The position numbers and the translations under genes were made by a program. Positions 9,548-46,700 of a DNA stretch of 64,000 nt are shown here, one piece after another. Below the pieces are notes generated by a model that saw nothing but the letters and a program-made list of their open reading frames with translations, was not told the DNA's origin and did no database searches. Numbering within the stretch: position 1 is the stretch's first letter; each line of letters begins with the position of its first letter. The stretch comes from Lacunisphaera sp. (GTDB taxonomy: Bacteria; Verrucomicrobiota; Verrucomicrobiia; Opitutales; Opitutaceae), in contig JAQSCO010000015.1 of NCBI GenBank assembly GCA_029945445.1, positions 144,066 through 208,065 on the forward strand. The letters are read 5' to 3'.

Positions 9548-9632
9548 AAGTTTCAGGTATCAAGAGGAGCAGAATCCGGAGGTGCCGCCGAGCACACTTG
9601 TTACTTGATCCTGGGCCCTTGTCACTTGCCGT
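9548..9632. repeat. Heptamer-phased inverted repeat, CTTGnnn type
   Basis: At 9597-9631 five in-phase heptamers run CTTGTTA, CTTGATC, CTGGGCC, CTTGTCA, CTTGCCG. The partner arm at 9548-9564 contains CAGGTATCAAG, which pairs with CTTGATCCTG with a one-base bulge. The element fills the gap between the rnc start and the stop codon of the permease gene at 9633. Confidence 0.75.
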
Positions 9633-10427
9633 TTAGGAGCTCGCGCTCGCGTAGCGGCGCAGGCCGCGGTGGAAGGTGATGGCCGCGGTCGCGAACCACG
9701 CGACGGTGATGCCGAGGATCCACGCGATGGCTTGGGGCGTGGCGCCGTGGAGCAGGACCTGGGCGGGGATATTGCTCACCACCACCATCGGCAGGGCCCA
9801 GACGAAGGCGAACTTGGCGACCCCGACGAAGGCCTGCCGCGGCAGGCGGGAGAATTCGCTCAGCGTGAAGTAGCTGCCCTCGATGCCCTGCGCACTCGTG
9901 ATCCAGAAGGCCGCGGAGATGCACAGCACCAGCACGCTGTAATGGATGACCACGCCGCAGAAGATCAGGAACACATACAGCGCCAGGTCCAGCAGGCTCG
10001 GGTGCAGCCCGAGCTGGTGCGCGGAATAGGCGACGACGGACAGGGCGACGAGCGAGTTGATCAGGCTGTCGGGGTCGAGCTTGCGCGTGGTCGCCATGAA
10101 CATGATGTTGCCCGGCTGCGCCATGAAGAAGTCGAAGTTGCCGCTGCGGATGTTGCGGCCCATCTCGAAGATGCTGCTCCAGAAAAAGCCCATCAGGAAG
10201 CGCTGGATGAGCATCGAGGTGCCGACGAGGAGCAGCATCTCGTATTTGGTCCAGCCGGCGACGGTCTTGGTGTGCGCATAGATGACCGAGACCATCAGGA
10301 TGTTCACGGTCATCCAGAAAAGTTCGACCAGCGCCCAGATGAAGAAATCGCCGCGGAACATCAGCGTCCGCACGATGGAGTAGCGGGCGGAGGTGAACCA
10401 GATGCGGGCGTAGTGGGCCAAGGTCAT
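9633..10427 (-). CDS. ABC-2 family transporter permease (COG3694-like)
   Basis: The 264-residue integral membrane protein has about six hydrophobic segments. It starts MTLAHYARIWFTSARYS and contains GRNIRSGNFDFFMAQPGN, a pattern of the ABC-2-like permease family usually encoded with a COG4587 partner and an ATPase. The partner lies immediately upstream (10561-11373), but no ATPase gene is adjacent in this window. The substrate is unknown. It probably forms a heterodimeric export channel. Confidence 0.8.
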   Translation of the reverse strand: MTLAHYARIWFTSARYSIVRTLMFRGDFFIWALVELFWMTVNILMVSVIYAHTKTVAGWTKYEMLLLVGTSMLIQRFLMGFFWSSIFEMGRNIRSGNFDFFMAQPGNIMFMATTRKLDPDSLINSLVALSVVAYSAHQLGLHPSLLDLALYVFLIFCGVVIHYSVLVLCISAAFWITSAQGIEGSYFTLSEFSRLPRQAFVGVAKFAFVWALPMVVVSNIPAQVLLHGATPQAIAWILGITVAWFATAAITFHRGLRRYASASS

Positions 10428-10430
10428 TTT

Positions 10431-10560
10431 TGATTTTTGATTCTCGATTTTCGATTGGCGGAGCCGGAAAGAGCGAATCCAGGCGGCGGGGCGAATCGCA
10501 GTTGGCGTGAGGTGATCAGTGGTTGGTTGGGGAATCCAAAATCGAGAATCAAAAATACAT
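10431..10560. repeat. Heptamer-phased inverted repeat, TGATTnn type
   Basis: Left arm 10431-10458 reads TGATTTT, TGATTCT, CGATTTT, CGATTGG. Right arm 10533-10560 reads AATCCAA, AATCGAG, AATCAAA, AATACAT. An 18-nt core (10434-10451 with 10538-10555) is a perfect inverted match. The element fills the whole gap between two ABC-2 permease genes, ending right at the stop of the upstream one. Confidence 0.85.
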
Positions 10561-11373
10561 TCATCCGCCCACGGCGGTGTGCAGCCGCAGCCCGCGCGTC
10601 CAGAGGAACTGGCCGATCATCAGGATGGCGACCGCCCAGCAGGCTTGGATGCCGAGGCCGGAGATGATGGCCGCGGGGTCGTTGAGGCGGCCGGTGAAGA
10701 TCGCGACCGGGAAATACATCTGGTAATAGTAGGGCAGATATTGGGAGATCCGGAAGAGCCAGTCGGGCAGCAGGTCGAGCGGGAAGATCTGCCCGCCGAG
10801 CACGGATTCGAGCGCCATGGACAGGATCACCATGCCCTGGATCTCGAGCAGCCAAAAGCTCAGCATGCCGAAGCAATACGCGATGCCGAACTGGATGAGC
10901 GCCGACATCGCCAGCGCCGGCAGGCCGAGCGCGAGGCGCCACCAGTCGTGCGGGACGGCCAGGTAATCCTTGAGCAGGGGATAGGTCACGACCACGGGCA
11001 GGAGGATGAGCAGGCCGGTGACGAGCCGCGCCGACACGTAGATGCTGAAGCGGTAGGCGAAATAATTGACCGGCTTGAGCAGGAACTGGTTGATGAGGCC
11101 GTTGCGGATCTCCTCGCTGATCTGGTAGTCCTCGTTGAACGCCCCGATCATGAACTGCACGACGATAAGCGCCACGAAGTAGGTGAAGGTCTGTGCGAAG
11201 CTGTAGCCGCCGATGGCCGCGTTGCCGGAGTAGGCCGAGCTCCAGAGGATGAACACCACCACCAGGTGGAAGAAAGAGAAGAAGCCGCGCACCGCGAAAT
11301 TCACCCGATAGACCAGATTGCTCTGGAGGCCGACGTTGAAGGCGGCGGCGTATTTGGTCAGGGTGGCGAGCAT
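10561..11373 (-). CDS. ABC-2 family transporter permease (COG4587-like)
   Basis: The 270-residue protein has about six predicted membrane segments. It has the family pattern EEIRNGLINQFLLKPVNYF between segments two and three, typical of the COG4587 half of a two-permease ABC exporter. The start at 11373 gives MLATLTKYAAAF. It would pair with the 9633-10427 product. The 133-bp gap to that gene is taken up entirely by a repeat. Confidence 0.8.
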   Translation of the reverse strand: MLATLTKYAAAFNVGLQSNLVYRVNFAVRGFFSFFHLVVVFILWSSAYSGNAAIGGYSFAQTFTYFVALIVVQFMIGAFNEDYQISEEIRNGLINQFLLKPVNYFAYRFSIYVSARLVTGLLILLPVVVTYPLLKDYLAVPHDWWRLALGLPALAMSALIQFGIAYCFGMLSFWLLEIQGMVILSMALESVLGGQIFPLDLLPDWLFRISQYLPYYYQMYFPVAIFTGRLNDPAAIISGLGIQACWAVAILMIGQFLWTRGLRLHTAVGG

Positions 11374-11378
11374 GGCTC

Positions 11379-11472
11379 AGTAGTGAGTAGCGGGTAGCGA
11401 GTAGTGAGTAGTCAGCATGCGGAGGATGGCAAATTTCCTATGCGCACTACTCGCTACTCGTTGTTCGCTACT
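11379..11472. repeat. Heptamer-phased inverted repeat, GAGTAGn type
   Basis: Left arm 11385-11412 is four in-phase heptamers: GAGTAGC, GGGTAGC, GAGTAGT, GAGTAGT. Right arm 11445-11472 is CACTACT, CGCTACT, CGTTGTT, CGCTACT. Across 27 nt the arms match at 22 positions. The right arm includes the stop codon of the ParA gene (11468-11470). Confidence 0.85.
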
Positions 11473-12265
11473 GGGGTGCCCCGTTTTCCTTCAGCCCGAA
11501 CCGCTCGGCGACTTCCTTGCCCAGGGCGCGGTAGGCGGTGGCACCGGGGCCGTGGGGGTCGTAGGAGAAGATCGGCTTGCCGAAGCTCGGGGCCTCGCTG
11601 AGGCGCACCGTGCGCGGGATGAGGGTTTCGAAGATCTTGTCGCCGAGGTGCTGCTTCACCTCGTCCACGACCTGCTTGGAGAGGTTGGTGCGGCTGTCGA
11701 ACATCGTCATGACGATGCCGCCGATATCGAGGGTGGGGTTGACGCCGGCCTCCTTGAGGCGACTGACGACCTTGAGGATCTGGCCGAGGCCCTCGAGCGC
11801 CATGTATTCGCATTGGAGCGCGATGAGCAGGTGGTCGGCGGCGGCGAGGGAATTCATCGAGAGCATGCCGAGGGCCGGCGGGCAGTCGATGATGATGGCG
11901 CGGTAGCCGCCGGAGTTGCGGAGCGGCTCGAGCACGGTGCGGAGCCGCATCAGGTAATTCGGCTGCTGGGCCAGCTCGATCTCGATCGCGGCGAGGTCCT
12001 GCTCCGACGGGATGAGCGCGAGGTGCGGCCACTCGGTCGGGGTGAGCATCTCGAACGCGCTGCCCTCGCCGCGGAGGGGTCCGTAGAGGCTCTTGCCCTC
12101 CTGTTTCTCGATGCCGAGGAAGCTGGTGGCGTTGGCCTGCGGGTCGAGGTCCACGACGAGGGTGTGGATCTTCCGCTCGGCGAGGGCCGCCGCGAGGTTG
12201 ACCGCGGTGGTGGTCTTGCCGACGCCGCCCTTCTGGTTGGCGATGGTGAAAACGGTGCAGGCCAT
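11468..12265 (-). CDS. ParA/Soj family ATPase
   Basis: The 265-residue protein has the deviant Walker A KGGVGKTTT near residues 12-20, the switch motif DLDPQANAT, and Walker B IIIDCPPALG. ParA ATPases position chromosomes, plasmids or other cargo by binding DNA non-specifically. The ATG at 12265 (MACTVFTIANQ) is preferred to an in-frame TTG two codons upstream. No parB follows; the next minus-strand gene is an ABC-2 permease. It could be the chromosomal ParA with parB elsewhere, or an orphan positioning ATPase. Confidence 0.9.
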   Translation of the reverse strand: MACTVFTIANQKGGVGKTTTAVNLAAALAERKIHTLVVDLDPQANATSFLGIEKQEGKSLYGPLRGEGSAFEMLTPTEWPHLALIPSEQDLAAIEIELAQQPNYLMRLRTVLEPLRNSGGYRAIIIDCPPALGMLSMNSLAAADHLLIALQCEYMALEGLGQILKVVSRLKEAGVNPTLDIGGIVMTMFDSRTNLSKQVVDEVKQHLGDKIFETLIPRTVRLSEAPSFGKPIFSYDPHGPGATAYRALGKEVAERFGLKENGAPQ

Positions 12266-12420
12266 GCGCAATTAACCGGAAAGAGCGCGCGGGAGTCTAG
12301 CGTTAAGTAGGGCGAGAGGTGGCCTGCCAGCCGTAGCCGATTTCCGCTGCGCGAATAAAATGCCCGCCGTCGCCGAGCCTATGGCCGGCAGCCTTCGGCT
12401 TCACTTCACGTGGCGAAGGC

Positions 12421-12494
12421 TGGAGGCGCGGGGCGGAATCGAACCGCCGATAGAGCTTTTGCAGAGCTCGGCCTTACCACTTGGCTACCGCGCC
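12421..12494 (-). tRNA. tRNA-Cys (anticodon GCA)
   Basis: On the minus strand GGCGCGG pairs with CCGCGCC. The anticodon stem GAGCT/AGCTC frames a loop with anticodon GCA. The T arm is GGCGG-TTCGATT-CCGCC, the discriminator is T and CCA is encoded. The rest of the 12266-12568 gap shows nothing else recognisable. Confidence 0.96.
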
Positions 12495-12568
12495 GGTGAC
12501 CAAACGAGCGCGCAACTTGTGTCAAAAAATGCCGTTCGGCAAGAACTGATATTTGGGAGGGGAACCGG

Positions 12569-13930
12569 TCACTTTGGACCGTCATCCGACTCGGCTTTCA
12601 GCTCATGCAGCGGCGGCACCGTCTTCAGCGCGGGCAGCGCGACGGCGACGATGACCACCACGAGGATCGTGCCGAGGCCGCCGCCGGCCGCAGCGGCGAC
12701 CGGGCCGAATAGCGCCGCGGCCAGTCCGGCGCGCAGCTCCGATATCTCGTTGGAGGAGCCGATGAACAATTGGTTGAACGCCGTCACGCGGCCGCGCAGC
12801 GCGTCGGGCGTCAGCAGCTGCACCAGCGTGTGGCGGACGACGACGCTGAAGTTGTCGCACACGCCGCTGAGGTAGAGCGCGGCCATGGAAAGCCAGAAAT
12901 TCGTCGAGAGTCCGAACAGCACGATGGCGGCGCCGAAGCCGGCGACCGACCACAGCATGCCGAGGCCCGGGCGCTTCGCCGGCGGGAGGTGCGTGACGAG
13001 GAAGGCCATCGTGATGGCACCGAGCGCGGGCGCGGCGCGCAGCCAGCCGAGGCCGGCCGGGCCGACGTGCAGGATCTTGTCGGCGTAGATGGGCAGCAGT
13101 GCCACGGCGCCGCCGAGGAGCACGGCGAAGAGGTCCAGCGTGATGGCCGCGAGGATGGGCTTGCGCTGCCAGATGAAGCGCACGCCGGCGAACACGTCGG
13201 GCGCCGGGCCCGCCGCCGCGGGACGGACCGGCGCATGGGTCTGCACGCCGAGCAGGAGCAGGGCGAACGCGACCGACGCCACGAAATCGAGCAGGTAGAC
13301 GGCGTCGTAGCCGGCGCCCGCGACGAGGAACCCGCCGAGCGCGGGGCCGATGACGGTGGAGAGTTCGAACGCGCTGGCGCTCCACGTGACGGCGTTGCTC
13401 ACGGCGCTGGTGGGAACCAGCAGCGGCACGAGCGCGGCGCGCGCGGGGTTGCCCAGCACGCGGGCGATCGACTGCAGGAACAGGAGGACGAAGATGACCG
13501 GCAGCGCGGGATTGTCGAAATGCAGCAGGGCCGGGTCGGTGTGGCGCTCGAACACCAGTGCGATGGAACGGAGCAGGCCGTTGGCGGCGCGGAGCGGGGC
13601 GAGGTCGGGCAGCGCCGCGTGGTAGCGGCTGAGCAGCAGGAGGCCGAGGGAAAAGAACCCCGCGGCGGCCATGGTCCACGCCACGAGCCGGCGCCGGTCG
13701 AGCCGGTCGGCGAGCACGCCCGCCGGCAGCACCAGCGCGAGCAGCGGGATGACATTGACGAGGCCGACGAGCCCGAGCGCCGTGGCCGAGTTGGTCCACT
13801 GGTAGATCTGCCAGGCGATGGCGACGCTCATGGCCTGGCGACCGGTGTTGGAAAGAAAGAAACCCGTGAGATAACGCGGGTAGCCGGCGTGCCGCATCGC
13901 GGCGTAGGGATCGCGCACGGGTGCGCTCAT
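12569..13930 (-). CDS. MFS transporter (EntS/MFS_3-like exporter)
   Basis: The 453-residue protein has about twelve hydrophobic segments. The major facilitator loop motif appears as GVLADRLDRRRL after segment two, and the N-terminal GFFLSNTGRQAMSVAIAW fits the enterobactin-exporter-like MFS_3 group. It probably exports a small molecule. Its ATG overlaps the stop of the sensor kinase gene (ATGA at 13927-13930), so the two are translated together. The frame is open further upstream, but that part lies over the kinase gene and is not coding. Confidence 0.87.
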   Translation of the reverse strand: MSAPVRDPYAAMRHAGYPRYLTGFFLSNTGRQAMSVAIAWQIYQWTNSATALGLVGLVNVIPLLALVLPAGVLADRLDRRRLVAWTMAAAGFFSLGLLLLSRYHAALPDLAPLRAANGLLRSIALVFERHTDPALLHFDNPALPVIFVLLFLQSIARVLGNPARAALVPLLVPTSAVSNAVTWSASAFELSTVIGPALGGFLVAGAGYDAVYLLDFVASVAFALLLLGVQTHAPVRPAAAGPAPDVFAGVRFIWQRKPILAAITLDLFAVLLGGAVALLPIYADKILHVGPAGLGWLRAAPALGAITMAFLVTHLPPAKRPGLGMLWSVAGFGAAIVLFGLSTNFWLSMAALYLSGVCDNFSVVVRHTLVQLLTPDALRGRVTAFNQLFIGSSNEISELRAGLAAALFGPVAAAAGGGLGTILVVVIVAVALPALKTVPPLHELKAESDDGPK

Positions 13931-16002
13931 GCCGGCGGAGCCTCCGGCTCGCTGAGGGACGCGAAGGGATGCACCGTGCCACTCTGCGCCACGGGCAGGA
14001 AGATGCGGAACACGGAGCCCCGGCCCGGCGTGCTCTCCACCTTCAGGGTGCCGTGGTGGGTGCGCACGATGCCGAGCACCGCGGCCAGCCCGAGCCCGCG
14101 GCCGGTGAACTTGGTGGTGAAGAAGGGATCGAAGATCCGCGCGAGCACCTCGGGCGGCATGCCGCAGCCGGTGTCGGTGATCGCGAGGCAGACGTAGTCG
14201 CCGGGCGAGACCTCCATGGCCGGCGGGGTCCCGGACGGGGCGGCCGAACCGATGGTGACGGCGGAGGTGGCGAGGCGGATCGTGCCGGGCCGGCCCTCCA
14301 GCGCCTCGGAGGCATTGATGACCAGGTTCATGATGACCTGGCGGATTTGCGAGGGATCCGCCTCGTTCCGCGGCAGGCCCGGGGCGAGGGCGAACTCGAG
14401 CTTCGGCTGCTTGCCGATGGAGAGCTCGAGCAGCCGCGTGGTCTCGGTCACGAGTTCGTTGAGGTGGATGCGCTCGGTCCGGAAGCTGCCCTTGCCCGCG
14501 TAGGCGAGCAGCTGGTGGCAGAGCTCGGCGGCGCGGTTGGCGGAGGTGAGCACGCTGTCGAGCCGCGCGCGGTTGGCGGCCGACTCGCCGGTCTCGAGGC
14601 GCGCGAGCGAGGTGTTGCCGACGATGACGGTCAGCAGGTTGTTGAAATCGTGCGCGATGCCGCCGGCGACCAAGCCGAGGCTCTCCAATTTCTGCGTCTC
14701 CTGCATCTTGTGCTGGAGCTTGCCGGCCTGCGCCTCGGCCAGCTTGCGGGCGGTGATGTCGGTCTGCGTGCCGGTGATGCGCCGGGGCGCACCGGTGGCG
14801 GGGTCGCGGGCGACGACCTTGCCGCGGTCGAGGATCCATTGCCATTCGCCTGATTTCGCCTTCAGGCGGTGCTCGCGGGCAAAGTGGTCCCGGCCGGCCC
14901 ACACGATTTTCTCGTCCGCGGTGAACGCGGCCAGGTCATCCGGGTGCAAAAGGTCGAGGAACCCCTTTCGGCCCTGTGAGATTTCATCCGGCGCGTAGCC
15001 GAGCATGCTGGCCCAGCGGGGGCTGCGCAAAACCCGGTCGGCCCCGACGTCGCAGTCCCAGAATCCGTCCTGGCTGCCCTCGAACACGAGCTGCAGTCGC
15101 TGCTCGTTCTCGCGGATGGCCTTCGCCTGGCGGGACAGGCGGCCCAGCAGGCTGCGCTGCCAGAGCAGCACGGCGAGGACCGCCGTCGCGACCAAGGTGA
15201 TGGCGGGCAGGTAGGGCCCGAGGTCGCGCCAGCGGAGCTGCTGGGGCTCGAGGGGGCCGAGCCATCTTTCATGCAGCGCATCCTGCTGCCGGTTCAACTT
15301 GAGGGTGAAGAGCCCCTGGTTGATGCGGGCGAGCAGCGCCTTCTGCCCGGGCTGCACGGCGAAGCAGAGCTGGTAGTTGATCTCGGTGAATTCCAGCGCG
15401 CTGCGCACGACGTGGGTGAACCCGAGGTGCTTGATCTGGTAGTCGGTGATGAGATGCGTGCCGAGCAACGCATCGCATTCGCCCCGCTCCACGGCCTGCA
15501 GGCATTCGGCCAGCGAGTTGTAGGTCCGGATGTCCGCGTCCCATGGCTGGCGGCGGGCGAACTCGTGCGTGATGGAGTTCTTGATCGCGGCGAGGCGCAG
15601 GCCGCGCAGGTCGGCCAGGGTGGTGATCGGCGGCCGTTCGCGGTGGAAGTAAAGGCCGCAGACGAGTTTCTCGTAGGGCAGGGAAAAATCCATCCGCGCC
15701 GCCCGTTCCTCGGAGGGCACCACGAGCCCCAGGATGTCGCCACGGCCCTGCTGGAAGTCGGCGTAAATATCCTGCCAGTGCCGGAGATCGAGCTCCACGC
15801 GCAGGCCCTGATCGGCGGCCACGGCCCGGATCAGGTCCACGGCGAAACCCTCCGGCTGCCCCTTGCCGTTCAGGGAGGCAAAGGGCGGGCTGGTGCTCTC
15901 CATCATCACGTGCAGGACGGGAGTCTCCGCCGCGGCCAGGGGGCCGGCCGCGAGCAGCGTGGTCAGCAGGGACAGGCGGCAGACGATGCGGGCCCGGCTC
16001 AT
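13927..16002 (-). CDS. Sensor histidine kinase with periplasmic solute-binding domain and PAS domain
   Basis: The 691-residue protein has a signal peptide (to about residue 24), then a family 3 extracellular solute-binding domain (about residues 28-250; FAVDLIRAVAADQGLRVEL is typical). A membrane segment follows near 265-283, then a PAS/PAC region (about 300-430) and a kinase core with GGIAHDFNN (His near residue 451) and an HATPase domain containing DTGCGM and GRGLGLA. The solute domain would sense an amino acid or similar ligand in the periplasm. No receiver domain or response regulator gene is adjacent. Both gene ends overlap neighbours by ATGA. Confidence 0.9.
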   Translation of the reverse strand: MSRARIVCRLSLLTTLLAAGPLAAAETPVLHVMMESTSPPFASLNGKGQPEGFAVDLIRAVAADQGLRVELDLRHWQDIYADFQQGRGDILGLVVPSEERAARMDFSLPYEKLVCGLYFHRERPPITTLADLRGLRLAAIKNSITHEFARRQPWDADIRTYNSLAECLQAVERGECDALLGTHLITDYQIKHLGFTHVVRSALEFTEINYQLCFAVQPGQKALLARINQGLFTLKLNRQQDALHERWLGPLEPQQLRWRDLGPYLPAITLVATAVLAVLLWQRSLLGRLSRQAKAIRENEQRLQLVFEGSQDGFWDCDVGADRVLRSPRWASMLGYAPDEISQGRKGFLDLLHPDDLAAFTADEKIVWAGRDHFAREHRLKAKSGEWQWILDRGKVVARDPATGAPRRITGTQTDITARKLAEAQAGKLQHKMQETQKLESLGLVAGGIAHDFNNLLTVIVGNTSLARLETGESAANRARLDSVLTSANRAAELCHQLLAYAGKGSFRTERIHLNELVTETTRLLELSIGKQPKLEFALAPGLPRNEADPSQIRQVIMNLVINASEALEGRPGTIRLATSAVTIGSAAPSGTPPAMEVSPGDYVCLAITDTGCGMPPEVLARIFDPFFTTKFTGRGLGLAAVLGIVRTHHGTLKVESTPGRGSVFRIFLPVAQSGTVHPFASLSEPEAPPA

Positions 16003-16841: not shown

Positions 16842-16922
16842 CCCGGGAAATCCCCCTTTGCGCAAGCCGGCTTTGTGCGGGGCAGGGATTGACCTCGCGA
16901 CGCGGGGCTGCAGAGTGGCGCC

Positions 16923-17579: not shown

Positions 17580-17591
17580 AGGGCGCGGTCA

Positions 17592-17622
17592 TTGGTTGAG
17601 AGTTGAGGGTTGGGGAAACCAA
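17592..17622. repeat. Short heptamer run, GGTTGAG type
   Basis: Three in-phase heptamers at 17594-17614 (GGTTGAG, AGTTGAG, GGTTGGG) follow the DUF1080 stop by 12 bp. TTGGTT (17592-17597) and AACCAA (17617-17622) can close a hairpin. Confidence 0.55.
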
Positions 17623-17655
17623 GCAGGGCAAGTCTGCGCCCTTACGTTTTGAACA

Positions 17656-17779: not shown

Positions 17780-17813
17780 ACAGGGGATGTAACCGACAAA
17801 AGGGCCGGGCCGC

Positions 17814-19470: not shown

Positions 19471-19564
19471 GGCGCCTGCGGCGCAGTTAGGGGTTATGCG
19501 TTCTTGGTTAAGAGTGTCAGGTTCGAATAGCTCCTAACTCCTAGCCCCTAACGGCGCTTGCGCC
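19471..19564. repeat. Heptamer-phased inverted repeat, GTTnnnn type
   Basis: Six in-phase heptamers occupy 19486-19527 (GTTAGGG, GTTATGC, GTTCTTG, GTTAAGA, GTGTCAG, GTTCGAA). The opposing arm 19531-19551 is CTCCTAA, CTCCTAG, CCCCTAA. Outer GC-rich flanks 19471-19485 and 19552-19564 also pair. The element ends one base before the stop codon of the ADOP gene at 19566. Confidence 0.8.
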
Positions 19565-19565
19565 C

Positions 19566-22028
19566 TCACTCCGCCCGCAAGGCCACGATCGGGTCCACCC
19601 TGGCTGCCCGGCGCGCGGGCAGCCAGCTGGCGAGGCTCACCGCCAGTGCCAGTACGAGGCCCGCGAGGGCGAAGACGAGCGGACTCGCCGCGGGCAGCTC
19701 CGGCCACTGGCTGCGGGCGATGCGCACGGCGATCGCCGCCGCGGCGCCGCCAAAGACAAAACCGCCGGTGAGCAGCCAGGCGCCCTGCGTCGCGACCAGC
19801 CGGATCAGCCCGGCGGCCGTGGAGCCGAGCGCGGCGCGGATGCCGAACTCGCGCATGCGCCGCGTCACCTGCAGCGCGAGCAGGCCGTAGAGCCCGATGG
19901 CGGCGAGCACGAGGCCGAGGAGACCGAACAGCCCGATGAGCGTGAGGGCGAAGCGCTCGGTGACGCGCGTCAGCGCCACCTGCTCCGCCATCGTGCTCAG
20001 CTCGTAGGCGGCGAGCCGCGGGTCGACGCGGGCGAGCGCGGCGCGGACCGTGTTCTCCAGCGAGCGCGGCTCGACCGCGGTCTCGAGCACGAAGGTGAAC
20101 TCGTTGAACGTGACCGAGGCGGCCAGCACCTGCGCGAGCGGGAGGTGCAGCGTACCGTTGATCTCGCCGTCATTGGGGTCCTCGATGATCTTGGTGTCGG
20201 CGGCGACGCCGACGATGGTGAACCACGGCCGCGGGCCGTCGAGCCGGCCCCATTTCACCAATTGGCCGACGGCGTCCTTGCCCGGCCAGTAGCGGCGGGC
20301 GAAGGCCTCGTTGACAATGCACACGTGCTGGCCGGCGGCGTTGTCGGCCGTGGTGAAATCGCGCCCGCGCAGCAGGGTTTCGCCGGTGGTCGCGAAATAG
20401 CCCGGCACCGTGGCGCGCAGGTAGGCGAGATGGAAGCCCCGCGGCTCGGGCGGAACCGCCCCGGCGGGGTTGTTGCTGATGAGCTGGCGCGCGGCCTCCA
20501 CCGGATGCGGCAGGGTGACGGTCGCGGAGCGGACGCCCGGCACGGCGCGAAACTCCCCGAGCGCCTTGTCCAGCGCCTGGGTGCGCGCCTCCGGCGTCGG
20601 ATAAAGCTGGTCGAGGGTGACCTTGAAGTTCAGCCGGTTCTCCGTGGCGAAGCCCCAGGGCTGAGTGACGAGCGTGCGGAAGTGGCCGGTGAGGAGGCCG
20701 GCGCCGACGAGCAGCATGAGCGCGACGGCGATCTCCCCGACGACGAGGGCGCCGAGGAGGCGGCGCGTGCCGCGGTCGAGGGTGGCGCCGCGTCCGCCGC
20801 CAGTCATCGCCGAGCGCAGGTCCGCGCGGCTGGCGCGCCAGGCCGGCAGCAGGCCGAAGCCGAGTCCGGCCAGCAGGAGGGTGCCGGTGGCGAAGCCGAA
20901 CACGGGCAGGTTGAGCCGCACGGCGTGGTCGAACTCGCGCATGGCGCTGCCGGTGGCGTCGGAGCCCTCAGGGCTGAGCGCCACGAGCAGCGGCGAAAAC
21001 CAGGTGGCGATGAGCAGGCCCGCGGCGGTGCCGAGGGCGGCGAGCAGGAGGGACTGGGCGAGTGATTCGCGCAGTAGCTGGCGGCGGGAGGCGCCGAGCG
21101 CGGCGCGGATGGCCGTCTCGCCCTCGCGCTCCACGGCGCGGGCGAGGAGCAGGCCGGCGAAATTGGCGGCGGCCACCAGCAGCGCGCAGAGCGCGGCGCC
21201 GTAGATCGCGAGCAGCTTGGGCCGCAGGTCGGCGACGAAACCCTCGCGCAGCGGGCGGATGTAGGCGCGCACGGGGTTGCTGGCGTCGGGTGCGGCGGCG
21301 TTGAGGCTCGCGCAAATCCGCCGCATGGCCGCATCGGCGGCGGCCGCGGTCACGCCCGGCTTCAGCCGCGCGACGCCGTAAAGGAAATGGCCGCGACCGG
21401 CCCGCGCATCAAAGCCGGCGGCGAGAGGCACCCAGATGTCGGCCCGGTAGGGATGGCGGAAGGTCGGCGGCATGACGCCGACAACGGTGTGCGGCGTGCC
21501 GTCGAGCAGCAGGACCTGGCCGAGCGCGTCGGAGCGCCCGCCGAACTGCCGCTGCCAGAGGTCGTGCCCGATGATGACGGTGCGCGCGGCACCGGGCTTG
21601 TCCTCGGCGGCGGTGAAGTTGCGCCCGAGCACCGGCGCGACGCCGAGCACGGTGAAGAAGTCCGCGGTCACGCGCGCGGTGGGCAGGTAGCGCGGGGGCG
21701 TGCCGGTGGCGGCGCCGAGCGTCAGGCTGGTGCCGGTGGCGGCGCCGAAGCCGGTGAAGATTTCGCCGCTGTGCTCCCGCCATTGCTGCACGGTCAGCTC
21801 GGAGAGGTTGAGGGTGTTGGCGCGGGTGTCCGGCTGGTCGAAGGCCTCGTGGAGCCGCACGAGCCGGTCGGGCTCGGGGAAGGGCAGCGGGCGGAGCAGC
21901 GCGGCCTCGACGATGGAGAAGATCGCGGTGTTCACGCCGATGCCGAGGGCGAGCACGAGCACGGCGGCGGCGGTGAAGCCGGGGGACTTGGCGAGTTGGC
22001 GGAACGCGTGGCGGAGGTCTTGGAGCAT
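19566..22028 (-). CDS. ADOP-type MacB/FtsX ABC permease (copy 1)
   Basis: The 820-residue protein begins [20 protein letters not shown], the ADOP (acidobacterial duplicated orphan permease) start, with a first membrane helix ([18 protein letters not shown]). A MacB periplasmic core domain, an FtsX block of three helices ([20 protein letters not shown]), a second periplasmic domain, and a second FtsX block follow, ending in [12 protein letters not shown]. MacB-type pumps move substrates by mechanotransmission in the cell envelope. It is the last gene of ATPase-ADOP-ADOP (25196 to 19566), 50 bp after copy 2. The ATG at 22028 matches the ADOP N-terminus; codons upstream do not. Confidence 0.9.
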
Positions 22029-38769: not shown

Positions 38770-38784
38770 GGTCTGGTTCTCCCA

Positions 38785-39192
38785 TCATGATTTGGCGCGC
38801 GGGGTCCGGGTTCGGCCGGGCTGCTGGCCGCAAGTGCCGTCGTCCCGGCGGTGCAGGATCACCACATGGCCGTCGGGATCGCTGACCTCCAGGTGCTGGC
38901 AGTTTCCGTGGCTCTGCGGTGGGGCGGCCATGGACACGCCCTTCGCCTGCAGCTCCGCATGCGCCGCAGTGATGTCGCCCACGGCCAGGGCGAGCCGGGC
39001 GCCGGCCGGGATCTCGCCGGCCTTCGCCCCGCCCTTGAGGGCGAGCGTGAGGTTGCCGCAGTTGAACTCGGCCCACTGGTATTCCTCGCTGAGGATCTCC
39101 TGCTTCAGGCCGAGCACGTCGCGATAGAACTTAACCGCGCGGGACAGGTCGCTCACGTGATAGAGGACAAAGTCGGTGCCGCGGATTTTCAT
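38785..39192 (-). CDS. VOC family (glyoxalase/dioxygenase superfamily) protein
   Basis: The 135-residue protein has the VOC start FVLYHVSDLSRAVKFYRDVLGL, an internal EFNCGNLTLAL, and the closing VSDPDGHVVILHR. This is one pair of beta-alpha-beta-beta-beta units. Metal ligands would include His14 and a later Glu or His; the substrate is unknown. It lies 169 bp downstream of ADOP copy 6, with GC-rich hairpins in the gap, and 15 bp upstream of the small barrel protein. Confidence 0.85.
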   Translation of the reverse strand: MKIRGTDFVLYHVSDLSRAVKFYRDVLGLKQEILSEEYQWAEFNCGNLTLALKGGAKAGEIPAGARLALAVGDITAAHAELQAKGVSMAAPPQSHGNCQHLEVSDPDGHVVILHRRDDGTCGQQPGRTRTPRAKS

Positions 39193-39361
39193 GGCTGGTT
39201 GGGGATTAGCGCCGAACCAGCGTGGAAAGTTCCGGCTGAAGGATACTGCTAGTGCCGGGCGGCCGGCTTGTCGAACCCGCCTCCGTCGGGAACGACGGCA
39301 GTAGGCGGCCGAATATTATTCAGCAATCCGCCGCATGCGAAAAGCCGCGGCGGCCGCGGTC

Positions 39362-41797: not shown

Positions 41798-41807
41798 TTT
41801 TTGAAAA

Positions 41808-44213
41808 TCATTCGCTACGCAGGGCGGTGAGCGGATCGATCCGCGTGGCGCGGCGGGCGGGCAGCCAGCAGGCAAAGACGGCCACGGCGGCGAGCAGCAG
41901 TGGCACGCCGATGAAAACCACCGGATCGTAGATGGAGGTCTCAAAGACCATCTGCTGCAGCAGGCGCGCGGCGGCGAAGGCCCCGAGCAGGCCGAGGACG
42001 AGGCCTGCGGCGATGAGCCCGGCACCTTCCCGCAGGACCAGGCCGAGCACCGCGCGGGGACTGGCGCCGAGCGCGGCCCGGATGCCGAACTCGCGCGTGC
42101 GTTGCGCCACGCCGTAGGCGATAAGCCCGTAAAGTCCGATCCCGGAGAGCAGCAGTGCGAGGCTGGCGAACAGCCCGAACAGCATCAGGTAGAGCCGCGG
42201 TTGCGTCACCGTGTTGGCCACGAGTTTTTCCACCGGCGAGACCGAGCCGACCGCCTGGTCGGGGTCCACGCTCCAGACGGCCTGCTGCATGGCCTTGGCG
42301 AGGGTGTCGGGCCGGACATTGGTGCGGACGATGAGGGAACCGAACGCCGTGGGCCGCTGCACGATCGAGCGGTAGACCTGCAGCGGCAGCTGGGCAACAC
42401 CCAAGCCGGTGCGGAGGACGTCGCCCACGACGCCGACGATCTCGAATTCCGCCGCCGGCGAGGCGCTGGTGCTGCGCAGCCGCCGGCCGACCGGGTTTTC
42501 GTTGCCAAAGAATTGCTTCGCGGTGGCGGCGCTGATGACGACCACGCCCGGCGCCTTCGGGTCGTCGGCGCCGGTGAAGGTGCGGCCGGCGAGAAGCGGG
42601 ATGCCGGCGGCCTTGAAAAAGTCCACGCCGACCGAATCGTAGAAGGCCTGCGGGACATTCTGCTCGTTGACGTTGCTCGGGCCGACCGGCAGCAACGTGA
42701 CGGGGATGCCCCAAGTGAAAGGCAGGGTTTGCGTGAAGCCGGCGGCGGTCACGCCGGGCACGGCCGCGACGGCCTGCTCGACGCGCACGTAGAAATCGCG
42801 GCGCTTGTCGGCGGTGTCGTAGCGCTTGTTCGGGAGGGAGACATTGAGCGCGAGCAGCCGGCCGGTGCTCATGCCGGGGTTTTGCCGCAGGATGGCGCCG
42901 AAGCTGCGGCCGAGCAGGCCGGCGGCGACGAGCAGGACGAGCGCGAGGGCGATCTCGGCCACAACCAGGCCGGAACGCAACCGGTGCGACGCGGGGCCGG
43001 CCGAACCGCGCCCGGCGCCGTCCTTGAGCGCGTCGTTGGGGTCGGTCCGGGAGGCGCTCCATGCGGGGACGAGGCCGAAGGCCACGCCGGTCGCGAGCGT
43101 GAGGGCCAGGGCGGCGAGCAGCACAGGCGAATTGATGGCGATCTCGCCGGCCCGGGGTAGCCAGCCGTCGCCGACGACACCGAGGATGGCGCCAATGCCC
43201 CAGTTGGCGAACAGCACGCCGAGACCGCCGCCGACGGCGGCCAGCACGAGGCTCTCGGTCAGGAGCTGCCGCAGCAGGTGCCCGCCGGACGCGCCGAGCG
43301 CGGCGCGGACCGCGAGTTCCTTGCGGCGGCCGATGGCGCGGACGACTGAAAGTCCGGCGACGTTGGCGCAGGTGATGAGGAGGACGCACGCGACGGCGCC
43401 GAGGACGACGTGGAGGCCGGTGCGGTAGTTGCCGACCACGAGCCCTTGCAGGTCGGCGACAGCGAGCGACCAGCCCTCGTAGTCCTTCGGGTGCGCTTGC
43501 TCCAGCTGGCGGCCGAAGGTCAGCATCTCGGCGCCGGCCTGCTCGAGGTTCACGCCGTCCTTGAGCCGGGCAAAGGTGCTCCAGTAGCGCGTGGCGCGAT
43601 CCAGGGCCGCCTTGCCGTTCATCGGGATCGGGCGGAAGAGGGCGGCGTTGCCCCAAGGGTCGCTGAAACTGTCGGGCATGACGCCGATCACTGTGTGCGG
43701 CACGTCATCCAGCACGATCTGCTGGCCGATGATGTCCGGCCGGGCGTGGAATTGGCTGCGCCATAGGGCGGCGCCGAGCACGACGACCGGCGGGGCGCCC
43801 TCGGTGGTCTCGTCGGGGTTCCAGGTGCGGCCGAGCATCGGCGCAATGCCGAAGAGCCTGAAATAGGATTCCGTCGCCTGCGCCTCCGTCAGCTGGGCCG
43901 GGGTGGCGGTCTTCGTCAGGTTGACGTAGTAATATTGCTGGGCGGCGATCTCGGCGAAGGACCGGTTTGCCCGCGCGAGATCCAGGAAGGTTGCCGGGGC
44001 AAGGATTGAGGCGCCCTGTTCCTTGTGCTGCGACTGCACCTGCACCAACCGGCCCGAGTTGCGGTAGGCGAGCGGCTTGAGGAGCAGCGCGTGCACGATC
44101 GAGAAGATGGCCGTCGAGGCACCGATGCCGAGCGCGAGGATCAGGATCGCGACGATGGAAAACCCGGGCGACTTGCCCAACGAGCGGGCGGCGGAGTGGA
44201 GGGCGTGGATCAT
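41808..44213 (-). CDS. ADOP-type MacB/FtsX ABC permease (copy 7)
   Basis: The 801-residue protein starts MIHALHSAARSLGKSPGFSI and ends RRATRIDPLTALRSE. FtsX blocks carry IGRRKELAVRAALGASGGHL and [20 protein letters not shown]. The ATG at 44213 aligns with the ADOP start. It is 207 bp downstream of its ATPase gene; the gap contains a strong hairpin at 44350-44378 but no promoter I can recognise. It is followed by copy 6 after 10 bp. Confidence 0.9.
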   Translation of the reverse strand: MIHALHSAARSLGKSPGFSIVAILILALGIGASTAIFSIVHALLLKPLAYRNSGRLVQVQSQHKEQGASILAPATFLDLARANRSFAEIAAQQYYYVNLTKTATPAQLTEAQATESYFRLFGIAPMLGRTWNPDETTEGAPPVVVLGAALWRSQFHARPDIIGQQIVLDDVPHTVIGVMPDSFSDPWGNAALFRPIPMNGKAALDRATRYWSTFARLKDGVNLEQAGAEMLTFGRQLEQAHPKDYEGWSLAVADLQGLVVGNYRTGLHVVLGAVACVLLITCANVAGLSVVRAIGRRKELAVRAALGASGGHLLRQLLTESLVLAAVGGGLGVLFANWGIGAILGVVGDGWLPRAGEIAINSPVLLAALALTLATGVAFGLVPAWSASRTDPNDALKDGAGRGSAGPASHRLRSGLVVAEIALALVLLVAAGLLGRSFGAILRQNPGMSTGRLLALNVSLPNKRYDTADKRRDFYVRVEQAVAAVPGVTAAGFTQTLPFTWGIPVTLLPVGPSNVNEQNVPQAFYDSVGVDFFKAAGIPLLAGRTFTGADDPKAPGVVVISAATAKQFFGNENPVGRRLRSTSASPAAEFEIVGVVGDVLRTGLGVAQLPLQVYRSIVQRPTAFGSLIVRTNVRPDTLAKAMQQAVWSVDPDQAVGSVSPVEKLVANTVTQPRLYLMLFGLFASLALLLSGIGLYGLIAYGVAQRTREFGIRAALGASPRAVLGLVLREGAGLIAAGLVLGLLGAFAAARLLQQMVFETSIYDPVVFIGVPLLLAAVAVFACWLPARRATRIDPLTALRSE

Positions 44214-44349
44214 TTTTGGGAAAAGCACAACCGCCAGTTCGCGGTGGGGAGGGGATGACCACCGAAGTGACCCCACAACCGTGAGTGGCGGAAGTGCAAA
44301 GTACGGGTGGAAACGGGCCTCCGGGCCGCCTCCTGATTATTCCAGATGC

Positions 44350-44378
44350 GTTGAACCCGTCCGGAGGCCGGGTTCAAC
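44350..44378. other. Perfect 10-bp hairpin between ATPase and permease genes
   Basis: GTTGAACCCG (44350-44359) pairs with CGGGTTCAAC (44369-44378) over a 9-nt loop. No T-tract follows on either strand, so it is not a standard terminator. It may act as an mRNA-stabilising or partially terminating element between the ATPase and ADOP copy 7. Confidence 0.6.
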
Positions 44379-44420
44379 CGAGGGCTTGCGCCTTAGTGCG
44401 CAGAGCCGGCCCCGATAGGC

Positions 44421-45140
44421 TCAGGTGGACGCTTCCGCTTCCCGGGTGACGGCGCTTTCCTCGACGACGCGGCCGTCGAACACGTGGATGGTCCGCTCGG
44501 CGTGGCGCGCGAAGCGCGTGTCGTGCGTGACCATCACGATGGTCGAGCCCGCGCGGTGCAGCGAGTGGAGCAGCTCCATCACGGCGTCACCGTTCTTCGA
44601 GTCGAGGTTGCCGGTGGGCTCGTCCGCGAGCAGGACGGCGGGGGAGCCGGCGAGGGCGCGGGCGACCGCGACGCGCTGCTGTTGACCGCCGGAGAGCTGG
44701 GACGGGAGATGCTTGGCGCGGTGGCCCATGCCGACCTTTTCGAGCGCCTCGGTGACGCGCGTCTTGCGCTCGGTGGCGGGCATGCCGCGGTAGGTGAGGG
44801 GGAGCTCGACGTTCTCGTAGACCGTGAGGTCGCCGATGAGGTTGAAGGACTGGAAAATGAAACCGATCTCGCGGTTGCGGATGCGGGCGCGCTCGGGGAG
44901 CGTGAGGCCCTGGACGGGACGGCCGTTCAGGACGTAGCTGCCGTCCGTCGGCGTGTCGAGCAGGCCGAGGATGGAGAGCAGGGTGGACTTGCCGCAACCG
45001 GACGGGCCGGCGATCGACACGTATTCACCCTTGCGGATGTCCATGTGGATGCCGGACAGGGCGTGGGTCTCGACCTCGTCGGTCAGGAAGACCTTGGTCA
45101 CGCCGTCGAGTTTGATCAGGGAGGGATTTTCGTTGGTCAT
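44421..45140 (-). CDS. MacB/LolD-type ABC transporter ATP-binding protein
   Basis: The 239-residue ATPase has Walker A GPSGCGKST, Q-loop IFQSFNL, signature [15 protein letters not shown], Walker [12 protein letters not shown] and H-loop VTHDTRF. It is the canonical MacB/LolD class. It lies 222 bp after the HlyD-type adaptor gene and upstream of ADOP copies 7 and 6. It is the most likely motor for those permeases and possibly for the ATPase-less ADOP copies. Confidence 0.93.
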   Translation of the reverse strand: MTNENPSLIKLDGVTKVFLTDEVETHALSGIHMDIRKGEYVSIAGPSGCGKSTLLSILGLLDTPTDGSYVLNGRPVQGLTLPERARIRNREIGFIFQSFNLIGDLTVYENVELPLTYRGMPATERKTRVTEALEKVGMGHRAKHLPSQLSGGQQQRVAVARALAGSPAVLLADEPTGNLDSKNGDAVMELLHSLHRAGSTIVMVTHDTRFARHAERTIHVFDGRVVEESAVTREAEAST

Positions 45141-45202
45141 GGGGGGAGGGAGTCGTGGTTGAGGTACAGTAACACCGGCAGGTGCCTGGCGGTTACAGGA
45201 AA

Positions 45203-45274
45203 TTATTCCTTCGCGTCCGGGTCGGTGGCGACCAGGGCGGTGAGGAGGGCGAGGATGAGGACGGGAGCGAACAT
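45203..45274 (-). CDS. Possible 23-residue membrane peptide
   Basis: The gap between adaptor and ATPase genes holds an ATG-started 23-codon frame, beginning MFAPVLILALLTALVATDPD and ending in AKE. One short hydrophobic helix precedes an acidic tail. No Shine-Dalgarno is visible and no homologue is recognised. The rest of the 45141-45362 gap shows nothing else. The frame may be a chance occurrence. Confidence 0.25.
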   Translation of the reverse strand: MFAPVLILALLTALVATDPDAKE

Positions 45275-45362
45275 GGTGGGAAAGGACGGTGGCTGGAATA
45301 CACGGCAGGAGCGGAGGAAGTTTCAGTTTTCGTCGGTTCCGGCGGGTGCGGCATGAAAATGA

Positions 45363-46616
45363 TCAATTCAGCCGGATGCGGTCGTTGGCGTCCCACTGGG
45401 ACATGTCGGAGAGGATGACGCGGTCGCCGGGCGAGAGGCCCTGGACGATCTCGATGGTGTTGACGGAGCTGCGGCCGAGCTGGACCTGGGTGCGGACGGC
45501 CTCGTTGCCCTCGGCGGCGAGCTTGAAGATGCCGACGGTGCTCTTCTCCTGGCCGAAGGCAGGGCGGCCGACGTAGATGACATCGTTCAGGCGCTCGAGC
45601 TCGATGGTGCCGTCGACCGAGAGATCGGGGCGGGCGCCGCGCGGGAGCTCGTTCACGATCGTAACGTCGACGAGGACGGTGCCGTTCTGCACGGCGGGGT
45701 CGATGCGGGCGACGCGGCCCTCGACGATGCCGTTGCGGGTGTCGATCTGGGAAATCTGGCCGATGGCGATGTCCTTGGCCTGGGTTTCCGCGATGCGGAT
45801 CTCCGCCTTGAGCTTGGACGGATCGGCGACGCGGGCGAGGTTGCTGCCCGGCTGGACCTGGGCGCCGACCTCGACGGGGAGGGCGGAGAGCACGCCGTTC
45901 ATGCTCGAGCGGACCTTGAGCGCCTCGAGTTCGTCCAGGCGGAGCTTGGCGAGCGAGCGCAGGCGCTCGACCTCGGCCTCCTGCACGGCGAGCTGGGGCT
46001 TGATGGATTCCTGGGAAAAGGCGTAGCGTTTCTGCTCGATCGCGTTGCTGGTGGCGCCATCGGACGCGGTGGCTTGGGCGAGCTTGAGCTCCAGCTCGGA
46101 CACGAGGCCGTCGCGGAAGAGCTGCTCCTTCACGTCCGACTGGAGCTTGGTGGTTTCGAAATTTGACTTGGCGCGGGCGGCGGCGGCCTCGGCGGCCAGC
46201 AGCTGGCTCTCGAGCTGCACGCGCAGGTTCGCCAACTGGGCCTCGGCGGCGCGAAGCTGGGACTGGGCGTTGTCGGCGGCGGACATGACGTCGGGGTTGG
46301 CGAGTTCGAGGATGAGCGTGCCCGGCTGGACCAGCGCGCCCGGGCGGATGATGATCTTGTCGACCCGGCCCTGCGTGCGCGCGGCGATCCAGCGGATTTC
46401 CTCCGGCACGAGCGTGCCGAGGCCGCGCACCTGGCGGACCATCGGGCCGCGCTTCACGGTGTCGATCCACACGAGGTTGCGCTCCACGGTCGGCGCCGCG
46501 GGCTTGAGGCGCGACAGGCCGACGGTGATGCCGATGAGCACGACCGCGGCGATGATGCCGTAAATGATGCGCTTCTGGCGCTTTTCCTTGGCTACGTTGG
46601 GGCGGGCAATGTCCAT
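45363..46616 (-). CDS. MacA/HlyD-type periplasmic adaptor protein
   Basis: The 417-residue protein has one N-terminal membrane helix (IIYGIIAAVVLIGITVGL). A lipoyl/barrel-sandwich hybrid half follows (GRVDKIIIRPGALVQPGTLI), then a long coiled-coil hairpin (about residues 115-235), the second lipoyl half (NGVLSALPVEVGAQVQPGS) and beta-barrel and membrane-proximal domains. It would bridge the inner-membrane pump and the TolC-type channel. It heads the adaptor-ATPase-ADOP-ADOP unit. The ATG at 46616 is supported by a predicted sigma-54 transcription start near 46633. Confidence 0.9.
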   Translation of the reverse strand: MDIARPNVAKEKRQKRIIYGIIAAVVLIGITVGLSRLKPAAPTVERNLVWIDTVKRGPMVRQVRGLGTLVPEEIRWIAARTQGRVDKIIIRPGALVQPGTLILELANPDVMSAADNAQSQLRAAEAQLANLRVQLESQLLAAEAAAARAKSNFETTKLQSDVKEQLFRDGLVSELELKLAQATASDGATSNAIEQKRYAFSQESIKPQLAVQEAEVERLRSLAKLRLDELEALKVRSSMNGVLSALPVEVGAQVQPGSNLARVADPSKLKAEIRIAETQAKDIAIGQISQIDTRNGIVEGRVARIDPAVQNGTVLVDVTIVNELPRGARPDLSVDGTIELERLNDVIYVGRPAFGQEKSTVGIFKLAAEGNEAVRTQVQLGRSSVNTIEIVQGLSPGDRVILSDMSQWDANDRIRLN

Positions 46617-46642
46617 GCGGTGGTTAGTTGTGCGCGGATATT

Positions 46643-46658
46643 TGCAACGTTCATGCCA
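46643..46658 (-). promoter_or_regulatory. Sigma-54 promoter of the adaptor-ATPase-ADOP-ADOP operon
   Basis: The minus strand reads TGGCATGAACGTTGCA followed by AAT. GG and GC are ten bases apart. The leader is predicted at about 17 nt and contains ACAACT, as in two other leaders of the regulon. Confidence 0.9.
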
Positions 46659-46665
46659 ACGGCAT

Positions 46666-46700
46666 AGTTAGCTGTAAGCTGTTAGCGCTAAGAGGTAAGC
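46666..46700. repeat. Heptamer run between enhancer palindrome and sigma-54 promoter
   Basis: Five in-phase heptamers: AGTTAGC, TGTAAGC, TGTTAGC, GCTAAGA, GGTAAGC. No clear opposing arm is seen. The run occupies DNA that would loop between the activator site and the promoter. Confidence 0.65.

What the first reader, a model, noticed from the sequence alone, without database searches (positions are those of the whole stretch)
9548..46700. Six intergenic arrays of in-phase degenerate heptamers, each locus with its own heptamer
At 9597-9631, 10431-10560, 11385-11472, 17594-17614, 19486-19551 and 46666-46700 the DNA reads as consecutive 7-nt words sharing three to five fixed bases (CTTGnnn, TGATTnn, GAGTAGn, GGTTGAG, GTTnnnn, nnTTAGC types). 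Four are paired inverted arms. The consensus differs at each place, so this is not one dispersed sequence but one pattern. Heptameric short tandem repeats are known in cyanobacteria; inverted, locus-specific versions at gene ends are not something I know to be described.
Basis: seen in the sequence. Interest (0 to 1): 0.8.

Follow-up and report, generated by a model that had tools for sequence, protein, structure and literature searches.

The report
Seven-base-word hairpins between operon genes
In a family of bacteria the short gaps between neighbouring genes of an operon often hold a hairpin-shaped stretch built from repeated seven-letter DNA words; the word differs from species to species at the same gap, and one kind sits the same way round relative to the genes, so it looks like a real, little-described element whose job is not yet known.

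Summary
In detail: all six places show period-7 repetition above dinucleotide-shuffled gaps (p 0.017 to <0.001), and period 7 stands out in intergenic DNA of the 1.07 Mb sampled (42 runs against a mean of 2 in 20 shuffles). "Each locus its own heptamer" does not: 81 arrays of four congeners form 11 word families (random words 20-28). At one orthologous gap the word type changes without phylogenetic signal and 16 of 30 genomes lack an array. Intergenic heptamers, inverted pairs included, are in print, function unknown. New here: (1) strongly biased arm order (GTAG then CTAC 288 placements, reverse 3, in 100 genomes), lineage-bound rather than universal; (2) a stereotyped, oriented GTAG junction element: stop, ~5 nt, ~4 GTAGYGR words, GCAT, loop, ~5 YCRCTAC words, ~9 nt, ATG; co-directional in 33 of 35 sites, its GAGCAT mark on the stop side in 27 of 27 assignable ones; marked form in 13 of 25 genomes of the family, 0 of 263 others of the phylum. 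Stem strength in mRNA is not favoured. The mechanism remains open.

The parts
9597..9628 (-). stop-side arm, CAAG words (CAAGTGACAAGGGCCCAGGATCAAGTAACAAG on the minus strand), 4 nt after the TAA of the permease gene 9633-10427
   Evidence: CAAG family
9548..9564 (-). start-side arm, CTTG words (CTTGATACCTGAAACTT), 3 nt before the ATG of the RNase III gene 8819-9544
10533..10556 (-). stop-side arm, GATT words (ATTTTTGATTCTCGATTTTGGATT), 4 nt after the stop of permease gene 10561-11373
10428..10456 (-). start-side arm, AATC words, abutting the ATG of permease gene 9633-10427
11446..11472 (-). stop-side arm, GTAG words; a GTAG word supplies the TAG stop (11468-11470) of the ParA-like gene 11468-12265
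11440..11443 (-). GCAT at the inner edge of the stop-side arm, the place of the GAGCAT mark in relatives (here TGCGCAT, not GAGCAT)
   Evidence: mark in relatives
11379..11415 (-). start-side arm, CTAC words, 5 nt before the ATG of permease gene 10561-11373
17595..17615 (.). single short array GTTGAGAGTTGAGGGTTGGGG, no partner arm found
   Evidence: p=0.010
19531..19552 (-). stop-side arm (GTTAGGGGCTAGGAGTTAGGAG), 13 nt after the stop of gene 19566-22028
19486..19498 (-). start-side arm (CATAACCCCTAAC), far (about 170 nt) from the next start codon
46667..46699 (.). single degenerate array in a divergent gap, no partner arm seen
   Evidence: p=0.005

Best explanation
These are hairpin-shaped junction elements with interchangeable seven-base-word arms, lodged between the stop codon of one gene and the start codon of the next gene in an operon. 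SHOWN: period 7; few word families per genus; inverted arms with a strongly biased order within the family; preference for co-directional junctions; differing words and empty sites at one orthologous junction in 30 genomes; and, for the GTAG type in this bacterial family (probably Opitutaceae), a stereotyped oriented anatomy (stop, about 5 nt, about four GTAGYGR words, GCAT, loop, about five YCRCTAC words, about 9 nt, ATG). INFERRED: the GTAG copies descend from one dispersed element that spreads or is exchanged between junctions. It is tolerated, or useful, there because the paired arms bring stop and start back near each other (median 17 nt outside the arms), so that translation can still pass from one gene to the next. 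In these genomes Shine-Dalgarno sites are barely used, so a pyrimidine-rich arm next to ATG may cost little. The step from geometry to translational coupling is a hypothesis; the enzyme that moves or copies the element is not identified.
For: Geometry: stop to first word median 5 nt, last word to start median 9 nt, stop codon inside the array in 9 of 33. 33 of 35 GTAG sites in co-directional junctions, mark on the stop side in 27 of 27 with a one-sided mark there, and in 6 of 6 such sites from Verrucomicrobia records. AGCAT at the stop-side inner edge in 25 of 32, at the other edge in 2 of 32; GTAGG or GTAGA (as reverse complement) 14 and 13 at the other edge, 0 at the stop side; random-window control 32 of 1400. 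Co-directional gaps: 50 of 58 array gaps against 622 of 909 gaps, p=0.002. Arm order in 100 genomes: GTAG first 288 placements, reverse 3; CAAG first 174, reverse 13 (overlapping placements counted). Turnover. Weak Shine-Dalgarno use: 114 of 1438 genes against 82 shuffled. Marked form in 13 of 25 genomes of the family and 0 of 263 others of the phylum.
Against: On the mRNA strand the arms carry more A.C than G.U (GTAG 67 to 26, 45 to 19; CAAG 27 to 8; mixed own-genus set 29 to 17, p=0.10) and antisense RNA folds better in 30 of 33: stem stability in mRNA is not favoured, which speaks against a strong RNA hairpin. Variable positions do not match between the two arms of a locus clearly more than between loci (GTAG 0.859 to 0.832, p=0.13; GATT 0.778 to 0.807; CTTG 0.762 to 0.755). 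Both ends flush in 12 own-genus hairpins against 7.7 expected; 5' arm near the stop in 25 of 29 (15.8 expected), 3' arm near the start in only 13 of 29 (15.8 expected). For CAAG no orientation mark was clear and 20 of 26 confidently called sites were co-directional. 16 of 30 genomes lack an array at the junction followed. A short T run follows the 3' arm in part of the GTAG sites (>=4 T in 8 of 33, control 7 of 660), which a terminator would also show. Arm order is not universal: for GAAC/GTTC it is GTTC first in this family (75 to 7 placements, control columns) but mixed (8 to 6) in 30 loci from four genomes outside it. Gene sides were called by a codon model, not from annotation.
Confidence: 0.4

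Rival explanations
1. REP/REPIN-like miniature transposons moved by a Y1 (HUH) transposase: GTAG stop-side feet, CTAC at the far end, dispersed copies.
For: GTAG-first order resembles REPs, which end in GTAG; O. terrae, a verrucomicrobium, is reported highly enriched in GTAG REPs (PMC3733652, passages); five Y1_Tnp matches, three over the cut-off, in the own genome.
Against: In the about 3.2-kb loci around the five Y1 matches only one weak 15-nt period-7 run was seen. Other families (CAAG, GATT) lack the tag. Loops look unrelated between most sites by eye; no alignment was run. Most REP stems are 6-9 bp (PMC3733652); these arms are mostly 2-6 words.
Confidence: 0.15
2. Mutational by-product: slippage with a 7-nt register plus template switching builds and erases quasi-palindromes wherever they do no harm; no function.
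For: Heptamers are called the most abundant intergenic tandem repeat of many prokaryotes, function unknown (PMC6344855, passages); rapid turnover; words of other phyla are not nearer to own words than composition-matched permutations (p=0.27).
Against: Arms are not clearly corrected towards each other; the same word families recur at many loci; the oriented GAGCAT mark and the regular word counts (4 and 5 words in 15 of 33) need common descent or selection.
Confidence: 0.2
3. Binding-site arrays: a protein binds GTAGYGR-type words on DNA or single-stranded nucleic acid, so sequence rather than pairing is kept.
For: Core positions are kept while variable ones drift in the two arms; CspB binding of heptamer repeats is discussed in PMC4679880 (passage).
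Against: Different word families at the same junction would need many proteins; a 7-bp step turns neighbouring sites around the helix (general knowledge).
Confidence: 0.12
4. Transcription attenuator: the hairpin with the short T run before ATG ends part of the transcripts between two genes.
For: At least 4 T in a row within 9 nt after the 3' arm in 8 of 33 GTAG sites against 7 of 660 control windows; at least 3 T in 12 of 33 against 31 of 660.
Against: 21 of 33 sites have fewer than 3 T in a row; the arms are weaker as RNA on the mRNA strand than on the other; convergent gaps, where terminators are expected, hold 2 of 58 array gaps.
Confidence: 0.08
5. Backup stop codons: words of the stop-side arm place stops in all three frames after the upstream gene.
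For: 36 of 47 5' arms of the set from other phyla and families have stops in all frames, 21.8 expected.
Against: The excess vanishes without GTAG-bearing arms (9 against 8.5 of 17) and is not clear in the own genus set (12 against 9.3 of 50; 62 of 300 permutations as high).
Confidence: 0.05

Closest known systems
GGGAATC / GGGGA(T/C)T heptameric repeats of Xanthomonas and Nostoc (PMC4692102, passages)
   Same: Heptamers, mostly intergenic, dispersed, often as convergent inverted pairs (70 in Xcc, 75 in Xac)
   Different: There one G-rich word was studied per genome, proposed as G-quadruplexes, and its sites were more conserved than controls; here about ten degenerate words per genus, differing at orthologous junctions; no internal mark in the passages read
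tRNA-Leu intron P6b stem of Nostoc (PMC4476775, passages)
   Same: Arms of degenerate heptamers of two classes, TDNGATT and NNTGAGT, that replace each other; the GATT and GTAG words of the window resemble them by eye
   Different: Inside one intron, not at operon junctions; no descent shown (foreign words not nearer than chance)
TAACTGA repeats of Beggiatoaceae (PMC4679880, passages)
   Same: Heptamer arrays directly upstream of start codons
   Different: Direct repeats of one word, one inverted case only
REP / REPIN with RAYT (PMC3733652, passages; PMC3116915, listing only)
   Same: Dispersed extragenic palindromes with a GTAG tag
   Different: Short stems, not described there as period 7, often near RAYT genes
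Geobacter four- and five-heptamer elements (PMC2700814, passages and legends)
   Same: Degenerate heptamer arrays in many copies, some drawn as looped strand-switching pairs
   Different: Proposed regulator sites; one family also intragenic; other words
Cyanobacterial STRR (Vioque 1997 seen as a reference title only; Mazel 1990 recalled)
   Same: Short tandem repeats, heptamers as recalled
   Different: Not compared in detail here

Membership tests
Heptameric intergenic tandem repeats (STRR / 7-nt SSR) | Unit of 7 nt repeated in tandem, mainly intergenic | tested here: met
   in congeners (in G012 period 7 is only slightly ahead of periods 8, 10 and 11)
Heptameric intergenic tandem repeats (STRR / 7-nt SSR) | Perfect or near-perfect repeats of one word | tested here: not met
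   fixed and variable positions within a word, several words per genome
REP / REPIN | GTAG tag at one end of a short palindrome | tested here: inconclusive
   GTAG is the repeated word itself in one family; other families lack it
REP / REPIN | RAYT gene flanked by the repeats | tested here: not met
   five Y1_Tnp loci, one weak 15-nt run beside one of them
Nostoc P6b heptanucleotide stem | Located in the trnL group I intron | tested here: not met
   window sites lie between protein genes; the only Rfam hit of the window at gathering score is a tRNA elsewhere
Known structured RNA | Match to an Rfam family at gathering score | tested here: not met
   Searches (window; 20 of the 40 short sites held by then): 11 hits, all microRNA families, all below gathering score
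Intrinsic terminator | GC-rich stem followed by a T run | tested here: inconclusive
   T run of 4 or more after the 3' arm in 8 of 33 GTAG sites; convergent gaps hold 2 of 58 array gaps
Miniature transposon (MITE) | Conserved whole element and target duplication | not tested
   no alignment of loops and no target-duplication test was run

The most novel reading that the evidence does not exclude
A class of oriented intercistronic elements: modular hairpins whose arms are written in exchangeable 7-nt words (also 6, 8 and 10 nt), anchored at the stop codon of one gene and the start codon of the next, that spread between operon junctions and set or preserve coupling between neighbouring genes. 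In this bacterial family the GTAG type carries a directional GAGCAT mark. If so, the widespread, unexplained heptamer periodicity of bacterial intergenic DNA would in part be the trace of such junction elements.
Probability: 0.3. Interest if true: 0.82.

Novelty: new variant of a known kind. Interest (0 to 1): 0.6.

Why it matters
Heptamer repeats have been called the most abundant intergenic tandem repeats in a wide range of prokaryotes, with no clear clue to their function (PMC6344855, passage). The arm-order bias, the differing words at one junction and the oriented GTAG element turn that puzzle into tests that can be run in a single operon, and give a defined element to delete, invert or exchange.

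Tried and rejected
Rejected: one word per locus. A dictionary shared across phyla: 52 foreign arrays were not nearer to own words than permuted ones; the spread of GTAG arrays over many phyla came from searching for that word (I analysed 80 of the 119 loci it fetched), and none of 5 GTAG hairpins from outside Verrucomicrobia had the mark. Arm-to-arm copying: not supported; a first version was biased because arms had been chosen by similarity, and its clustering merged families. Selected mRNA stem. Stop-codon arms as a general rule. Shine-Dalgarno bridging: such sites are hardly used. A general purine rule for 5' arms: holds for period-7 hairpins (40 to 12 own genus, 46 to 3 elsewhere) but also for other hairpins (95 to 36), and GTTC-first arms break it. 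A universal arm order: no, see GAAC/GTTC (control columns). The reverse-pattern controls are not neutral, since GTTC and GATG are words themselves: GTTC first 75, GAAC first 7; GATG first 23, CATC first 5 placements. First crude gene-side calls on long loci disagreed with the orientation rule in some rows; they ranked ORFs by length in GC-rich DNA and were replaced by a codon model.

Mended on checking: the terminator test was first put down as not met; one search made it inconclusive, so an attenuator rival (0.08) was added and two other rivals lowered.

Rows dropped: 2 of 35 GTAG sites not called co-directional; 25 of 45 CAAG sites with weak or other gene context; one printed place (G037) not fetched, so 35 of 36 distinct printed places, from 12 genomes; the printed list was itself cut by the tool.
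Full report
WHAT WAS CHECKED. The window is part of contig C15 (144066-208065) of a 4.17-Mb, 66-contig genome. A same-genus genome, G017, gives the same permease match (contig place and E-value) as the genome of a record titled Lacunisphaera sp. K-2018 MAG004, so the genus is probably Lacunisphaera and the family Opitutaceae. All six places of the finding show lag-7 repetition above shuffles of their own gap (p from 0.017 to <0.001); four have inverted arms.

GENOME-WIDE SIGNAL. In 1.143 Mb fetched (1.068 Mb not N) intergenic runs of score >=13 number 21 at period 7 and 1-4 at the other periods from 4 to 13; period 14, its harmonic, has 10. Twenty dinucleotide shuffles of the intergenic DNA gave 0 or 1. 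Of 78 period-7 arrays in and out of called genes, 22 have an inverted partner of score >=14 within 250 nt, against 0 of 233 controls; at score >=12, 24 against 5 of 233. In three congeners the picture is less uniform: intergenic runs of score >=9 number 18 at period 7 in G016 (at most 3 at periods 4-13 otherwise), 9 in G003 (7 at period 8) and 9 in G012 (7, 6 and 6 at periods 8, 10 and 11).

WORDS. The 81 intergenic arrays of the four genomes cluster into 11 families, the largest with 22 members; column-relabelled words gave 20-28 clusters, largest at most 10. Hence the words are dispersed, not locus-specific.

THE SAME GAP IN RELATIVES. Four consecutive genes of the window (ParA-like ATPase, two ABC-2 permeases, RNase III) were followed in 30 genomes, the own one included. 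At the permease-permease gap, classed by reading: GATT words in 5, GAATTAA in 2, GAATTAC in 1, a period-6 CTCNTT word in 4, several arrays in 1, another dyad in 1, and a gap of 3-19 nt without array in 16. On a tree of the three proteins (9 of 27 inner branches well supported) GATT needs 5 changes for 5 rows, and all types together 13 changes (shuffled mean 13.3, as low in 107 of 200); only presence against absence is clustered (7 changes, shuffled 10.3, 15 of 500 as low). The ATPase-permease gap is partly inherited: the own genome, L065, L067 and L068 share CTAC words and a TTTGCCATC-like loop (by eye). Between the own genome and G016, 51 syntenic gaps hold arrays in both in 6, in one only in 8, in neither in 37; the other five genome pairs have both / one only / neither of 2/2/19, 0/1/44, 0/3/63, 3/2/34 and 0/1/34.

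PLACE. Among 909 gaps of 40-350 nt in the four genomes, array gaps are co-directional in 50 of 58 against 622 of 909 overall (p=0.002). Of 67 arrays in co-directional gaps, 32 lie within 12 nt of the next start and 21 within 12 nt of the stop (18.4 expected each). Hairpin 5' arms lie within 12 nt of the stop in 25 of 29, 3' arms within 12 nt of the start in 13 of 29 (15.8 expected each). Several upstream genes take their stop codon from the array itself. Shine-Dalgarno sites are barely used (114 of 1438 genes, 82 after shuffling).

ARM ORDER. In the sequences held, arms of twelve tested cores come in one order in 71 cases and the other in 1 (cores overlap). In 100 genomes of the family: GTAG then CTAC 288 placements in 38 genomes, reverse 3 in 2; CAAG then CTTG 174 in 27, reverse 13 in 5, ten of the 13 in two genomes with a different palindrome. 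One site may give several placements. The control columns add two pairs: GTTC then GAAC 75 in 25 genomes, reverse 7 in 5; GATG then CATC 23 in 10, reverse 5 in 3. Outside the family the order is not fixed for every word: GAAC first 8, GTTC first 6 distinct placements in 30 loci of four unnamed Verrucomicrobiota genomes. The rule is therefore lineage-bound.

THE GTAG ELEMENT. For 35 sites of 12 genomes a GAGCA[TC]-type mark sits at one inner edge only in 28 (13 five-side, 15 three-side), at both in 1, at neither in 6; random windows 32 of 1400. With gene sides called by a codon model, 33 of 35 sites are co-directional and the mark is on the arm next to the upstream stop in 27 of 27 with a one-sided mark; two more marked sites had no co-directional call. 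Six co-directional marked sites from Verrucomicrobia records agree, two others there had no co-directional call. In sense orientation AGCAT is at the stop-side edge in 25 of 32 and at the other in 2. Four and five words is the commonest count (15 of 33); stop to arm median 5 nt, arm to start median 9 nt, together median 17 nt, range -9 to 53. The own genome holds five distinct places of the marked form; it was found in 13 of 25 genomes of the family and none of 263 others of the phylum. The window's own GTAG site has GCAT at that place but not the full mark.

RESULTS AGAINST A SIMPLE RNA HAIRPIN. Variable positions of the two arms are not clearly more alike within a locus than between loci. 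In sense, A.C exceeds G.U: 67 to 26, 45 to 19 under a stricter site choice, CAAG 27 to 8, own-genus mixed set 29 to 17, not significant. The antisense strand folds better in 30 of 33; gaps without hairpins lean the same way (19 of 60 more stable in sense), so part of this is general leader composition. A T run of 4 or more follows the 3' arm in 8 of 33 (control 7 of 660).

MECHANISM. The anatomy puts stop and start at the foot of one stem, oriented by a mark. The reading I prefer is an element that lives at junctions because it keeps neighbouring cistrons together, possibly coupling them; selection on stem strength is not seen, so this stays at 0.4. A Y1-driven REP-like origin lacks support from gene neighbourhoods. 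Pure slippage does not explain orientation and the shared mark. An attenuator is possible for part of the sites.

PRIOR ART. Seen in passages only: PMC4679880, PMC4692102, PMC4476775, PMC2700814, PMC3733652, PMC4060949, PMC6344855, PMC7593598 (one reference line), PMC13155455. PMC3116915 and all others were seen in search listings only. Eight literature searches (titles and starts of abstracts of the 10-30 listed papers each) in the held open library showed no description of heptamer-arm elements in Opitutaceae or of a GAGCAT-marked junction hairpin; most subscription papers are not held. The Costa 2002, Mazel 1990 and Elhai 2008 papers on cyanobacterial repeats are recalled, not seen.

Noticed in passing
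L062, L064, L072, L085 (permease-permease gap); G003 and G012 stretches L091-L129: Arrays of period 6 (CTCNTT), 8 (CGCAAAG-, CACGACG-, TCTCCGTG-type) and 10 (ATTCGTGTCT-type), several with inverted arms, in the same kind of gap.
   Followed up: partly
L276, L280, L284, L288, L292, L296, L300: In unnamed Verrucomicrobiota a GTTCTCC heptamer array lies between GC-rich sequences that recur from site to site and look like two small palindromes, a composite dispersed element.
   Followed up: no
genomes G314 and G034 (listing): Dispersed palindromes CTTGACTCTTGACA...TGTCAAGAGTCAAG, heptamer-like with the opposite arm order.
   Followed up: no
genomes G090, G274, G281: Very many GTTCNNN placements with near-equal counts on both strands (83/85, 89/88, 128/144); in G266 23/62.
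   Followed up: partly
window 8819-9544: The gene after the CAAG-type hairpin is RNase III, an enzyme that cuts double-stranded RNA; E. coli rnc is known (recalled) to regulate itself through a leader hairpin.
   Followed up: no
own genome C15:82652-94077 and G016:C1:2938618-2951667: Clusters of CTTG and GATT arrays (7 in the own genome, 10 in G016) in a region partly syntenic between the two, with partly different words.
   Followed up: partly
window 12424-12494: tRNA gene on the minus strand, the only Rfam hit of the window at gathering score.
   Followed up: no
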